Shown here piece after piece: positions 40,076-43,247 of a stretch of DNA of 64,000 nt; the first letter of the stretch is position 1; each line of letters begins with the position of its first letter. Source of the DNA: Lanius collurio (Eukaryota; Chordata; Aves; Passeriformes; Laniidae). The notes under the pieces were generated by a model that had not been told where the DNA came from, did not search any database, and saw nothing but the letters and a program-made list of their open reading frames with translations. Made by a program: the position numbers and the translations under genes. The DNA is taken from the NCBI GenBank assembly GCA_020086605.1, contig JACBWW010000008.1, positions 24,393,234 through 24,457,233 on the forward strand, read 5' to 3'.

Positions 40076-40081
40076 CAAAGC
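40076..40081. repeat. target-site duplication, left copy (CAAAGC)
   Basis: Six bases immediately before the 5' LTR, matched exactly by 42604-42609 immediately after the 3' LTR. Six base pairs is the usual duplication length for class II (ERVK-like and alpharetrovirus-like) integrases. The match shows that the ends of this insertion are complete. Confidence 0.9.
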
Positions 40082-40377
40082 TGTTGGGATGCCTAGCCAT
40101 GAGGACCTGGGGAAGGGACCCTGGAGCAGAGGTACTGAGTTTCCCTGGGTTTCCCCTGCTCCCTGGTCACATGTACCTTAACCCTGTTCCTGATTGGGTT
40201 TTTTTGTTCCCCTGCCTGGGAGAGGCCCTGGTTATCCAGTGACTCCTTGGGCTGCTTGTGTACTGCAGCTGTGTGGCTGGAGAATAAACATCTCTGAACA
40301 TCTATCCAATATCGTTCCATGTTTCTTCCCATGGGCATCACAGTCTAATCCATGTTGCAGGAGACCTCACTGCAACA
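40082..40377 (+). repeat. 5' LTR of the Y-box element
   Basis: The block starts TGTTGGGATGCC and ends CACTGCAACA. It aligns along its whole length to 42304-42603. It contains an AATAAA poly(A) signal at 40283-40288, about 90 bp before the end, so R and U5 together are short. A clean TATA box was not identified; an A/T-poor promoter is possible. Confidence 0.92.
40283..40288 (+). terminator. LTR poly(A) signal AATAAA
   Basis: Lies in the motif GGAGAATAAACATCTC, shared with the matching position of the 3' LTR, which supports functional conservation within the family. Confidence 0.75.
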
Positions 40378-40725
40378 GATGGATAAAGCAGTCATACATC
40401 GATCCCTCAAGAGAGTGATTTTGAAGACCCCCAAAAGTTCTTGAGTGAAGGAACTCTCTGAATTTCTCTTCTCACCTTAGTTTGGCAGTTCTTTTTGGAC
40501 TATGGAGGAATCTTGGGAAATATGGCTCTTGAAGCCACAGAAGGAAATGTATCTAGAAATTAAATCCTAGCACAGCAAAATGTAAAACTTGCTCTGGGAC
40601 TTCTAGAACATTTTTTTGACTGGCTTTTCAAAAATTTCTTTCATGTTTCTCAGGACTTAATTTTTTATGTTATCCCTCTTTTAACTAGTTACTACGGTTT
40701 TTGGACCAAGATATTGGAGGAGATA
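40378..40725 (+). other. leader region of the Y-box element
   Basis: AT-rich sequence between the 5' LTR and the first open frame, in the position of a retroviral leader. It should hold the primer-binding site and packaging signal, but neither is recognisable by eye. There are no long open frames. Confidence 0.5.
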
Positions 40726-40950
40726 ATGGCTCAAGCAAAACATGGATCAGTGATAGAACTTCTCCTTGCTTTTCCTGTAATTGAAGACGCTCTTATGAAG
40801 CATGTGCATGGTCCCAGTAACATGGGGTCTCCCCTACCAGCAGAGGTGCCTGCGCTGGATGCGCCCAGCATCCTTGGCAGCACACACCTTATTGCGGACC
40901 CCATCCCAGGGTCCCCCACCACACGACCGCGAGTGAGAGAACACCACTGA
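40726..40950 (+). CDS. small upstream open frame in the Y-box element, unknown product
   Basis: A frame of 74 codons from ATG 40726 to TGA 40948-40950. The N-terminal third is predicted to be amphipathic and partly hydrophobic (the LLLAFPVIEDAL segment at residues 13-24). The rest is Pro- and Ser-rich and becomes GC-rich towards the end. I do not recognise the protein. Its position just behind the leader is where a gag start would lie, so a stub of Gag is one possibility. Another is the 5' part of the captured host message. It is in the same reading frame as the cold-shock frame downstream, but several in-frame stops (TGA 40948, TAA near 41155, TAG near 41230) separate them. Translation is unproven. 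Confidence 0.35.
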   Translation: MAQAKHGSVIELLLAFPVIEDALMKHVHGPSNMGSPLPAEVPALDAPSILGSTHLIADPIPGSPTTRPRVREHH

Positions 40951-41409
40951 AGGCACCACGGGTGCCATGGGTCACGTGCAGCAGAGAAGTGGCCCCCGCC
41001 AGCAGCCAGAACCGAAAACCAGCACGAACTGTGGTGTCGGCAGCAGAGCCAAGCGCGGCAGGAGCAGCACAGCAGAGCAGACCCGGCGGTGCCCACCCAG
41101 CCCTGCACTGCACCTCGTGGTGTGTGCCTCCGTGTCTCCACAATATCCTCACAGTAAACAGTGAGGGCCAGTTAGTAGAGATAGCGGCCAAGCAAAGTGG
41201 CACGCAAGCAGTGCCAGGATGTGGCAGCGTAGCTGTGGCCAGAGCTAGAAGCAGCAGTGGCAGCGCTGGTGTTGGGCAGAGCCGTGCAGGGCAGCACCAA
41301 GCCGGAGAGAGGCAGCTCACAGGGCGCGGTAGAGTTGGCGGAGCAGAGTCGTGCTGTGCCCAAGCAAGCGCTGGAGCAGAACCACTCAGACAGCGTAGGG
41401 CCGGTGGCG
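40951..41409 (+). other. GC-rich, CpG-rich spacer upstream of the cold-shock frame
   Basis: Strongly GC-rich, with many GCAG and GCAGCA runs. All frames translate to Ala/Gln/Arg/Ser-rich low-complexity sequence, and long overlapping frames appear on both strands only because of that composition. The frame of the cold-shock ORF is open from 41233 onward but has no ATG until 41410. Vertebrate YBX genes encode an Ala/Pro-rich, GC-rich segment just before the cold-shock domain. This spacer may therefore descend from such a 5' end, but no alignment by eye is convincing. Confidence 0.45.
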
Positions 41410-42021
41410 ATGGCAAAGCAGAGGCACACACAGCCCAGACACGCTGAAGCAGCATTGCTTGGGGAGTGTGGGGCAGCAGCAATGCGAGAGCCCAACCAAG
41501 ACATTGAGGTGGGCGAAGCAGCGGCCGTGCAAGACCAGCAGCCACAACACAGACACAAGCACGTAATAAGAGAAATTCTAGCTACGAAAATCACAGGAAT
41601 TGTGAAATGCTACAATGTCAAGCAAAAATATGGTTTTATAACAAGTTGTCACAACAAGGAAGACATATTCGTTCATCCTACTGCCATTATGAATGACCCC
41701 CAAAAATATATCCCAAGCTTAAGAGATGGAGAAATTGTAGAATTTGGCATCGTACGAGGAAGAAAAGGCCCGCAGGCAGCCCATGTGACAGGCCCTAGGG
41801 GTGTTCCAGTCAAAAGCAATCGTTATGCACAAAATTGTAAACAATATTCATATCAGCAACCTCTTTTCCCCAGTCCTACTTTTCCCTTTAATCCTATACC
41901 AAATATGAACTCTTTCCTAAGTTTATCCCACCTCCAATTTATCCCCAATCCTTTTTTCACCTCATGGCTTCCGTATGTAATTTCCTTTTCTCACAATTCC
42001 TCTCTGATACAGAGGGGATGA
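41410..42021 (+). CDS. Y-box-type (YBX family) cold-shock-domain protein inside an LTR element
   Basis: The frame encodes 203 residues from the first ATG in an open frame that extends back to 41233. Residues 1-50 are low-complexity (Ala, Gln, His, Glu). Residues ~55-135 match the YBX cold-shock domain closely. They contain the ATK-x-x-G start, the K-x-x-N-V strand, the RNP1-like motif KYGFITS (73-79), the RNP2-like motif DIFVHPTAI (85-93), and the DGE-x-VEF, KG-x-x-AA-x-VTGP and GVPV blocks (106-134). YBX proteins bind RNA and single-stranded DNA and control mRNA packaging, stability and translation. Of the four aromatic/His base-stacking residues known from YB-1, the Phe of RNP1 and the Phe and His of RNP2 are kept, but the Trp of KWFN is Cys (KCYN, residue 67). 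The tail (146-203) is Phe/Pro/Ser-rich and lacks the alternating basic/acidic clusters of YBX proteins, so it is divergent or truncated. There are no introns, unlike host YBX genes, consistent with capture as cDNA. The LTR would be the promoter. Confidence 0.82.
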   Translation: MAKQRHTQPRHAEAALLGECGAAAMREPNQDIEVGEAAAVQDQQPQHRHKHVIREILATKITGIVKCYNVKQKYGFITSCHNKEDIFVHPTAIMNDPQKYIPSLRDGEIVEFGIVRGRKGPQAAHVTGPRGVPVKSNRYAQNCKQYSYQQPLFPSPTFPFNPIPNMNSFLSLSHLQFIPNPFFTSWLPYVISFSHNSSLIQRG

Positions 42022-42303
42022 TAAAAAGGGGGAGGGAAGAAATTAATTGTCATTGTTTAGGGTTCCAACAGGTACAGATGGAAGAAATCCTTTCCTGCCT
42101 CAGTTTCCCCACAAAGCATGTTTAGAGAGGCCTGTCTTCCTTCTGCCAGCCCTAAGATGCTCCAGAGAAAAAATCTGTTTGGATATTTGGGGGCCCAGGA
42201 TGGTAGCTTGATTTCTTTTGAAATTTTTCTTGTTATCCTGTGTTTATCCAGCTGTTTCCAATGTTAAGTTTTAAATCTCTTTTATGAAAACAAAAGGATG
42301 AGG
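42022..42303 (+). other. 3' internal region with two purine-rich tracts
   Basis: A 20-base uninterrupted purine run (42023-42042, AAAAAGGGGGAGGG core) directly follows the stop codon. It looks like a textbook polypurine tract but lies about 260 bp before the 3' LTR. A weaker purine-rich stretch (42286-42303, interrupted by one C and one T) abuts the 3' LTR, where the functional plus-strand primer is expected. No open frame is present in this part. Confidence 0.5.
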
Positions 42304-42603
42304 TGTTGGGATGCCTCGCCATGAGGTCCTGAGAGAGGGGACCCTGGAGTAGAGGTACTGGGTTTCCCTTGGTTTCCCCTGCTCCCTGGTCACATTTACC
42401 TTAACCCTGTTCCCCACTGGATGGTTTGTGTTCCTCTGCCCGGGAGAGGCCCTGGTTGTCTGATGACTCCTCGGTCTGCTTGCGGTACCCCAGCCATGTG
42501 GCTGGGAGAATAAACATCTCTGAACATCTACGCAATATCGGTCCATATTTCTTCCCACAAGTATCACTGTCTAATGCATGTTGCAGGAGACCTCACTGCA
42601 ACA
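42304..42603 (+). repeat. 3' LTR of the Y-box element
   Basis: The block starts TGTTGGGATGCC and ends CACTGCAACA. It aligns end to end with 40082-40377 with substitutions and small indels, roughly 13% by eye. It carries an AATAAA at 42509-42514 where the 5' LTR has its own. The substitutions are spread along the LTR, with denser change in the middle. Confidence 0.92.
42509..42514 (+). terminator. LTR poly(A) signal AATAAA
   Basis: Equivalent to 40283-40288. In this LTR it would terminate the element's transcript, giving a short message that includes the cold-shock frame. Confidence 0.75.
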
Positions 42604-42609
42604 CAAAGC
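42604..42609. repeat. target-site duplication, right copy (CAAAGC)
   Basis: An exact match to 40076-40081, directly abutting the CAACA end of the 3' LTR. Confidence 0.9.
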
Positions 42610-43247
42610 TGTGTAAATTCACATTGTTTGATATTCTGCTTATTTGGTTCCAACTTCTTCCCTTCTTATTTTGTTTAGGTTTCTTTTCTCTGTAAATGGG
42701 AACTACTTTTTGCCAACATAGGAAGTCTTTTTCAAGGGACTTTCTTTCCTTGTGACTTTTAGCAATTGCAGGAACAGAATAAACATTGCTGCACATAGTG
42801 TGGTCATGTCAACATTTCATGGATGCATTTTCAACAGAGGATGCTATCCAAGACCATTTCCAGTCATAGTAAACTGAAGAAGTATAGGATTAAAGCTGAC
42901 CATCTCAGATACACTGTACTCACGACCATAATCCTGACTTTGTAAAACTTCCCTTCCTTGTAAGAAACATATTGGGGCTATCCACTTGAAACCACATTTT
43001 GTGTGTTCCCATGTGAAGCTGATTTCAGAAGAGATAGGGGACTTGGTTGCTGCACTGTTCCTCACTCACAAAATTGGTCTGGTTTTCTATTTTTTTAGGC
43101 AAGTGACAAGAATTCACTGCTCACTCAGTTGGTAGGCTCACCGTTTTATGGTCTGGAATGCCTTGGGCTGCCTGGAGAGATGGCCTGAGCAATCCTGGCA
43201 ACTCGGTGGCTCTGATACACAGCAAGTGTTAGCTGTTAGTCCATCGC
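42610..43247. other. non-coding interval between LTR elements
   Basis: AT-rich flanking sequence. No gene or repeat could be supported. Composition begins to change near 43130. Confidence 0.5.

What the first reader, a model, noticed from the sequence alone, without database searches (positions are those of the whole stretch)
40082..42603. A host-type Y-box cold-shock domain carried by a complete, non-autonomous LTR retroelement
Seen directly: two related ~300-bp LTRs with TGTTG...CAACA ends, an exact 6-bp duplication (CAAAGC) at both sides, and between them an intron-free frame with a clear YBX cold-shock domain. No gag, pol or env is recognisable. Known: YBX proteins package and regulate mRNA, and host YBX genes contain introns within the cold-shock-coding region. 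Inference: an ERV lineage captured a YBX cDNA and spread or was deposited with it, much as retroviruses capture oncogenes. An RNA-packaging protein is a suggestive passenger because it could help select or protect the element's RNA.
Basis: partly seen in the sequence, partly recalled or inferred. Interest (0 to 1): 0.88.

Follow-up and report, generated by a model that had tools for sequence, protein, structure and literature searches.

The report
LTR retroelement carrying captured YBX domain
In a genome that is likely a bird's, a small LTR retroelement with well over a hundred related places carries one gene whose cold-shock domain was likely copied from the host gene YBX1, is likely under selection, and would help the element's RNA to be packaged or copied by a helper virus.

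Summary
Window 40082-42603 is an LTR pair with an exact 6-bp target duplication around an intron-free Y-box (YBX) cold-shock frame. It is one worn member of a large family. The same genome gives 149 scored matches to the cold-shock frame (of 1304 candidates) and 150 to the family's N-terminal domain (of 1262). LTR pairs flank 33 of 38 loci examined. Nine fetched copies hold one open frame of 490-507 codons (N-terminal domain, low-complexity linker, YBX cold-shock domain, aromatic tail), leaving no room for pol or env. One copy has identical LTRs. Two copies have an empty site on a collinear contig, so movement looks recent. dN/dS is 0.27 (N-terminal) and 0.31 (cold-shock), and seven of eight YB-1 RNA contacts are kept. 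Host YBX1 has an intron inside this domain; the elements do not. All 39 element domains treed fall on one side of a branch from four host YBX rows. A crow protein shares the whole layout. Best reading: a non-autonomous LTR element captured a YBX1 cDNA and uses it, likely as a stand-in nucleocapsid. RNA binding, the helper and the N-terminal domain's origin remain inferred; no helper sharing the leader was found.

The parts
40076..40081 (.). target-site duplication CAAAGC, left copy
40082..40377 (+). 5' LTR (TGTTGGGAT...CTGCAACA)
40378..40400 (+). worn primer-binding-site region; five other copies read TGGTGGAGAATGCGGGCA here, which matches the 3' end of tRNA-Ala(AGC)
40502..40818 (+). degraded N-terminal domain of the element's single gene: homologous to residues 1-104 of the intact copies, split over two frames near 40564
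   Evidence: E 6e-10
41257..42021 (+). open frame (GTG, 254 aa): rest of the linker, YBX-type cold-shock domain and aromatic tail
41569..41835 (+). YBX-type cold-shock domain, no intron; the position of YB-1 W65 reads Cys in this copy (codon 41608-41610)
41836..42018 (+). Pro/Phe/Tyr-rich tail, 64.5% identical to the tail of crow protein P0004
42286..42303 (+). purine-rich tract directly before the 3' LTR (polypurine tract, by position)
42304..42603 (+). 3' LTR
42604..42609 (.). target-site duplication CAAAGC, right copy

Best explanation
The window holds a worn copy of a multi-copy, non-autonomous LTR retroelement whose only gene carries a cold-shock domain likely captured from spliced host YBX1 mRNA, and this domain likely works as a stand-in nucleocapsid that binds the element's own RNA for a helper retrovirus. 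Shown: LTRs, 6-bp duplications, a primer site matching tRNA-Ala(AGC) in several copies, one ~500-codon open frame with no room for pol or env, an intron-free YBX domain with most RNA-contact residues, dN/dS below 1 on the N-terminal and cold-shock domains, and two insertions with empty sites on collinear contigs. Inferred: the protein is made, binds element RNA through the cold-shock domain and helps packaging, primer annealing or strand transfer, as nucleocapsid does; the N-terminal domain would dock it to a helper's Gag; reverse transcriptase and integrase come in trans from one of the class II ERVs with long open pol frames in the same genome.
For: Copies: 149 scored matches to the CSD frame of 1304 candidates; 150 scored matches to the N-terminal domain of 1262 candidates, 16 of the 150 in frames of 499-518 codons; 144 exact LTR-end plus primer-site junctions, 0 for the reversed control; LTR pairs around 33 of 38 distinct loci. 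Unit insertion and recency: exact 6-bp TSD in 9 of 21 loci; empty site of L030 on C18 and of L034 on C19, each 99% over the whole 320-base joined flank; L032 LTRs identical over 244 of 244 bases. Use of the protein: dN/dS over 9 intact copies 0.27 (N-terminal, 95% interval 0.14-0.52) and 0.31 (CSD, 0.17-0.60) against 0.64 for the linker (0.50-0.82); K64, W65, Y72, F74, F85, H87 and K118, named as YB-1 RNA contacts in PMC9928419 (passages), kept in 35-37 of 37 or 38 readable copies. Capture: intron inside the host YBX1 domain, none in the elements; similarity runs past the domain into host YBX1 exon 5 in two crow proteins; 39 element rows on one side of a branch against 4 host rows, support 100/98. 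Helpers: of 150 scored class II thumb matches (253 candidates), 21 lie in frames of 932-1119 codons. Precedent: YB-1 affects HIV, MLV and MMTV RNA or production (PMC6040738, introduction).
Against: No expression, binding or mobility data. The N-terminal domain has no Pfam or PDB match and only a weak profile match to matrix domains of ERV gags in this genome (1 of 150 shuffles as good in the best of six comparisons, 3-17 of 150 in the others; with the narrower profile 57 of 200, 67 of 200 and 193 of 200). From capped lists: no capsid match within 7 kb downstream of 150 N-terminal hits, and no thumb match within 9 kb downstream of 100 of the 144 primer sites, so no helper sharing this leader was found. 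E121, another RNA contact, reads Gln in 35 of 37. The dN/dS intervals of CSD and linker overlap. Two insertions with empty sites have unlike LTR pairs (9 and 20 substitutions), which a fresh insertion should not. Eight of 21 loci lack a recognisable TSD. No canonical late-domain motif or N-terminal glycine by eye (recalled criteria). The AlphaFold model of a crow protein was useless (mean pLDDT 34).
Confidence: 0.55

Rival explanations
1. Passive passenger: a YBX cDNA was trapped once between LTRs, and the element spread because of its LTRs, primer site and leader alone; the protein does nothing for it.
For: Many copies have broken frames; the linker is only weakly constrained; a non-autonomous LTR element without intact ORFs has moved in Arabidopsis (PMC8704663, passages).
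Against: dN/dS 0.27-0.31 on two separate domains with intervals below 1; RNA contacts kept; 16 of 150 N-terminal hits still in frames of 499-518 codons; the layout is shared with a crow protein.
Confidence: 0.2
2. The protein acts on host mRNP biology rather than inside particles: it competes with or mimics host YBX1 so that element RNA is stabilised, exported, translated or hidden from silencing.
For: YB-1 is reported to stabilise retroviral RNA and is a major mRNP component (PMC6040738, introduction); the domain keeps host-like contacts.
Against: The C-terminal domain of YBX1 is replaced by an aromatic tail; the conserved N-terminal domain has no relative found outside this family.
Confidence: 0.2
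3. A plain processed YBX pseudogene that happened to land between two unrelated LTR copies.
For: The CSD has no intron.
Against: LTR pairs flank the CSD in 33 of 38 loci; no long A run inside; N-terminal domain and CSD share one frame in nine copies; empty sites lack the whole unit.
Confidence: 0.01
4. A host multigene family of YBX-like genes spread by duplication, with LTRs only nearby.
For: Crow copies are deposited as uncharacterized proteins.
Against: TSDs, primer site, purine tract and empty sites at the LTR borders.
Confidence: 0.02

Closest known systems
TR-GAG non-autonomous LTR retrotransposons of plants (example AT5TE33540, PMC8704663, passages read)
   Same: Two LTRs and one open frame of about 500-560 codons, no pol; moved in trans.
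   Different: Here the RNA-binding part is a host-type YBX cold-shock domain; no gag family domain is detected in the protein; the host is likely a bird; no autonomous partner was found.
Acute transforming retroviruses with a captured cellular cDNA (recalled)
   Same: A spliced host coding sequence, without introns, fused behind a sequence of another origin inside an LTR element that needs a helper.
   Different: Here the captured domain is kept across several subfamilies and in crow proteins as part of the element's standing gene, and it is RNA-binding rather than a growth regulator.
Class II (ERVK-like) endogenous retroviruses of birds
   Same: 6-bp target duplications (class trait recalled), TG..CA LTRs; open class II pol frames sit in the same genome.
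   Different: No capsid, protease, pol or env; tRNA-Ala(AGC) primer site; no partner with the same leader found.
Host YBX1 / YBX3-like genes (Y-box proteins)
   Same: Same type of cold-shock domain with the same aromatic RNA contacts.
   Different: Host genes are intron-split; elements mostly read Q for E121 and have a different tail and N-terminus.

Membership tests
LTR retroelement | paired LTRs with TG..CA ends | tested here: met
   LTR pair in 33 of 38 loci; TG..CA borders with a duplication of at least 5 of 6 bases in 13 of 21
LTR retroelement | target-site duplication of fixed length | tested here: met
   6 bp exact in 9 of 21 loci, 5 of 6 bases in 4, none recognisable in 8; mismatched control 2 of 380; empty sites
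LTR retroelement | tRNA primer-binding site after the 5' LTR | tested here: met
   full TGGTGGAGAATGCGGGCA in five of the loci printed (L030, L031, L033, L034, L048), partial in others, worn in the window; two matching tRNA-Ala(AGC) genes called by ARAGORN
LTR retroelement | polypurine tract before the 3' LTR | tested here: met
   by eye: GAAAACAAAAGGATGAGG in the window, AAGAAAGGGTGAAT in young copies
autonomous endogenous retrovirus | pol (and gag capsid) inside the LTR pair | tested here: not met
   internal part about 1.8 kb, filled by one frame of about 1.5 kb; in capped lists no capsid match within 7 kb of N-terminal hits and no thumb match within 9 kb of primer sites
TR-GAG | single open frame between LTRs | tested here: met
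   nine copies with one frame of 490-507 codons
TR-GAG | the frame encodes a GAG domain | tested here: inconclusive
   no Pfam match; weak co-linear profile similarity to matrix domains, none
processed YBX pseudogene | own poly(A) tail and own target duplication | tested here: not met
   longest internal A run 6 in the window, 6-9 in six other copies; duplications sit outside the LTRs
Y-box protein family | YBX-type cold-shock domain with RNA-contact residues | tested here: met
   E121 is changed to Gln in 35 of 37
Y-box protein family | charged C-terminal domain with basic and acidic repeats | tested here: not met
   replaced by a Pro/Phe/Tyr-rich tail; YBX1-like only for about 16 residues past the domain in two crow proteins

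The most novel reading that the evidence does not exclude
A recently mobile LTR element has exchanged the retroviral nucleocapsid for a host YBX1 cold-shock domain: its 500-aa protein is a minimal Gag-like shuttle that binds the element's RNA by a captured host RNA chaperone and feeds it to unrelated helper ERVs, making it a lineage of retroelements run by a stolen mRNA-packaging protein for as long as the split between this bird and crows.
Probability: 0.4. Interest if true: 0.92.

Novelty: new variant of a known kind. Interest (0 to 1): 0.8.

Why it matters
Host-gene capture by retroviruses is usually seen as short-lived oncogene transduction. Here a host RNA-binding domain looks like a lasting, selected part of a successful retroelement. 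It offers a natural test of whether a general mRNA-packaging protein can do the job of nucleocapsid, and of how a small element with no enzymes wins the packaging competition. Some 'uncharacterized' cold-shock proteins annotated in bird genomes, as in the New Caledonian crow, are likely copies of it. The empty-site pairs suggest it can still produce insertions that differ between chromosome copies.

Tried and rejected
Rejected: plain processed pseudogene between LTRs (see rivals). Rejected: dating copies by LTR-pair divergence. I computed K80 for 36 rows including duplicates, but L030 and L034, which have empty sites on contigs only ~1% different, carry LTR pairs with 9 and 20 substitutions, partly clustered, so the pair is no clock here and no ages are given.

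Led nowhere: Pfam, NCBIfam and PDB searches for the N-terminal domain (cold-shock matches, sub-threshold chance rows or none); viral contigs (six pattern matches, none confirmed); homologues of the window frame (one cold shock CspA family protein) and of the crow N-terminus alone (only the four crow proteins); AlphaFold of a crow protein (pLDDT 34, not used for fold search); host-exon query of 52 aa (swamped by element copies). A first hhalign run used a wrong switch and is replaced; an earlier script had an invalid option, so its N-terminal column was empty (redone). Script failure. Searches were partly or wholly waits.

Not in print, as far as searched: the listings in the held open-access library show no paper describing such an element; one search matched 240 papers on at least three of six terms and I saw only 10. 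I read the abstract, introduction and one results section of PMC6040738, and passages of PMC9928419, PMC11009239 (0 mentions of YBX or cold shock) and PMC8704663; the rest are search listings. Repeat libraries (Repbase, Dfam) were not available.
Full report
What is in the window. The finding's coordinates are exact. TGTTGGGAT...CTGCAACA LTRs at 40082-40377 and 42304-42603 are 86% identical and are framed by CAAAGC on both sides. Between them the frame 41257-42021 contains a cold-shock domain of YBX type. Upstream, 40502-40818 is a degraded homologue (E 6e-10) of the N-terminal domain that intact copies carry, so the window copy is a broken member of a larger design.

The family. A protein search of the same genome scored 149 CSD matches out of 1304 candidates; the N-terminal domain of one copy scored 150 of 1262, each at 88% identity or more. 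Both lists are capped. Of 38 distinct loci looked at, 33 show an LTR pair around the CSD; the five without are L018, L019, L023, L027 and L042, some of them cut short. L010-L028 were the search's own best rows; L029-L048 I chose for long frames or nearby LTR hits, so 33 of 38 is not a random sample. In nine of them (L029-L037) a single frame of 490-507 codons fills most of the internal part; over the 150 N-terminal hits, 16 sit in frames of 499-518 codons. Six young copies measured are 2305-2313 bases long with LTRs of 243-250 bases.

Architecture of the intact gene. About 105 residues of N-terminal domain (helices in a model of very low confidence), a Gly/Arg/Ala/Pro-rich linker of about 245, the CSD, and a Pro/Phe/Tyr-rich tail. 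Four Corvus moneduloides proteins, deposited as uncharacterized, share the CSD. P0002, which stands for a cluster of 24, has all four parts; P0003 ends before the tail; P0004 lacks the first residues of the N-terminal domain and P0005 most of it. The P0004 tail matches the window's tail (64.5%) and that of L041 (78%), while P0002's best matches are L039 and L029, which suggests that at least two subfamilies are shared between the two hosts.

It moves as a unit. Exact 6-bp duplications border TG..CA ends in 9 of 21 loci, with 5 of 6 bases in four more and none recognisable in eight; pairing left and right borders of different loci gives 2 of 380. Five copies (L030, L031, L033, L034, L048) carry the full TGGTGGAGAATGCGGGCA after the 5' LTR and others part of it; it is complementary to two tRNA-Ala(AGC) genes that ARAGORN calls in this genome. 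C18 and C19 are collinear: paired hits from about 47 kb to 4.8 Mb. L030 sits on C19 and its joined flanks match one unbroken stretch on C18 (99%, 320 of 320); L034 sits on C18 and its empty site is on C19 (99%, 320 of 320). L032's LTRs are identical over 244 bases. These point to recent insertion. That C18 and C19 are two haplotypes of one chromosome is inferred. Against a simple story, the LTR pairs of L030 and L034 differ by 9 and 20 substitutions, partly clustered, so LTR divergence is not age here.

The gene has been used. Over nine intact copies (36 pairs) dN/dS is 0.27 for the N-terminal domain (95% interval 0.14-0.52), 0.31 for the CSD (0.17-0.60), 0.40 for the tail (0.19-0.83) and 0.64 for the linker (0.50-0.82); the CSD and linker intervals overlap. 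Choosing copies without stops does not by itself lower missense change. Of eight YB-1 residues named as RNA contacts in PMC9928419 (passages), seven are kept in 35-37 of 37 or 38 readable copies, and the eighth, E121, is Gln in 35 of 37. Over the other columns identity to zebrafish YB-1 is 61%. The window copy has lost W65 (Cys), fitting its worn state.

Origin of the domain. Host YBX1 (C64, L054) ends an exon at ...VVEGEK, has an intron, and resumes at GAEAANV; a YBX3-like paralogue (C9, L055; the name is recalled) is split at the same place. Elements read through this junction, so the donor was likely spliced RNA. In crow copies P0002 and P0005 the similarity runs on past the domain into YBX1 exon 5, which favours YBX1 as donor. 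On an 88-column tree 39 element rows (35 loci including the window, plus four crow proteins; partial L038, L039 and L040 left out) are one side of a branch against four host rows (zebrafish YB-1, human YBX2, and the partial YBX1 and YBX3-like domains of this genome), support 100/98: one capture is enough. The tree is short and many inner forks are weak.

What was not found. The N-terminal domain has no family. It could be a matrix domain: a profile with old and young copies aligns co-linearly with matrix domains of four of the five Gag_p10-type loci of this genome (L051 gave no usable frame), with 1 of 150 shuffles as good in the best comparison and 3, 3, 5, 11 and 17 of 150 in the other five; the narrower profile gave nothing (57 and 67 of 200, and 193 of 200). 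No helper with the same leader was seen. Open pol frames of 932-1119 codons do exist, 21 of 150, and non-autonomous elements need not share a leader with their helper.

Mechanism. Retroviral nucleocapsid selects RNA, anneals the primer tRNA and helps strand transfer (established knowledge, recalled). Cold-shock domains act as RNA chaperones (recalled), and YB-1 is reported to stabilise or support retroviral RNA in several systems (PMC6040738, introduction). A protein with a conserved N-terminal domain, a loosely constrained linker and a constrained RNA-binding CSD, encoded by the only gene of an element without enzymes, is best read as a Gag-like RNA shuttle in which the CSD replaces nucleocapsid. 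The steps from RNA binding onward are inferred. The rival that it works on host mRNPs is not excluded.

Species. The best-matching N-terminal pieces here are 73-84% identical to the crow ones (top seven rows each).

Noticed in passing
L030 and L034 (LTR pairs): Two insertions that are absent from a collinear contig differ by 9 and 20 substitutions between their own two LTRs, partly in clusters. Newly made LTRs should be identical, so LTR recombination, gene conversion or unusual reverse transcription may be at work.
   Followed up: partly
G000 contigs C18/C19, also C45/C46 and C40/C42: Pairs of contigs with matching hits look like unmerged haplotypes of one chromosome, a natural place to look for insertion differences.
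   Followed up: partly
G000:C9:19460902-19460928: One LTR-end junction is followed by a longer perfect match to the tRNA-Ala 3' end than the usual copies have (overlap).
   Followed up: no
G000:C15:20886589, C117:265603, C5:29921121, C7:23497670 and others: 21 of 150 scored class II thumb matches lie in open frames of 932-1119 codons: this genome holds several ERV lineages that look recent.
   Followed up: no
window 42776-42796: A 21-base stretch 86% identical to the LTR's AGAATAAACATCTCTGAACAT, about 170 bases past the 3' LTR; a chance match or an LTR scrap.
   Followed up: no
P0002 (UniRef A0A8U7MGL6_CORMO) and relatives: Crow gene annotation carries proteins of this element's type as uncharacterized proteins, one cluster with 24 members.
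   Followed up: partly
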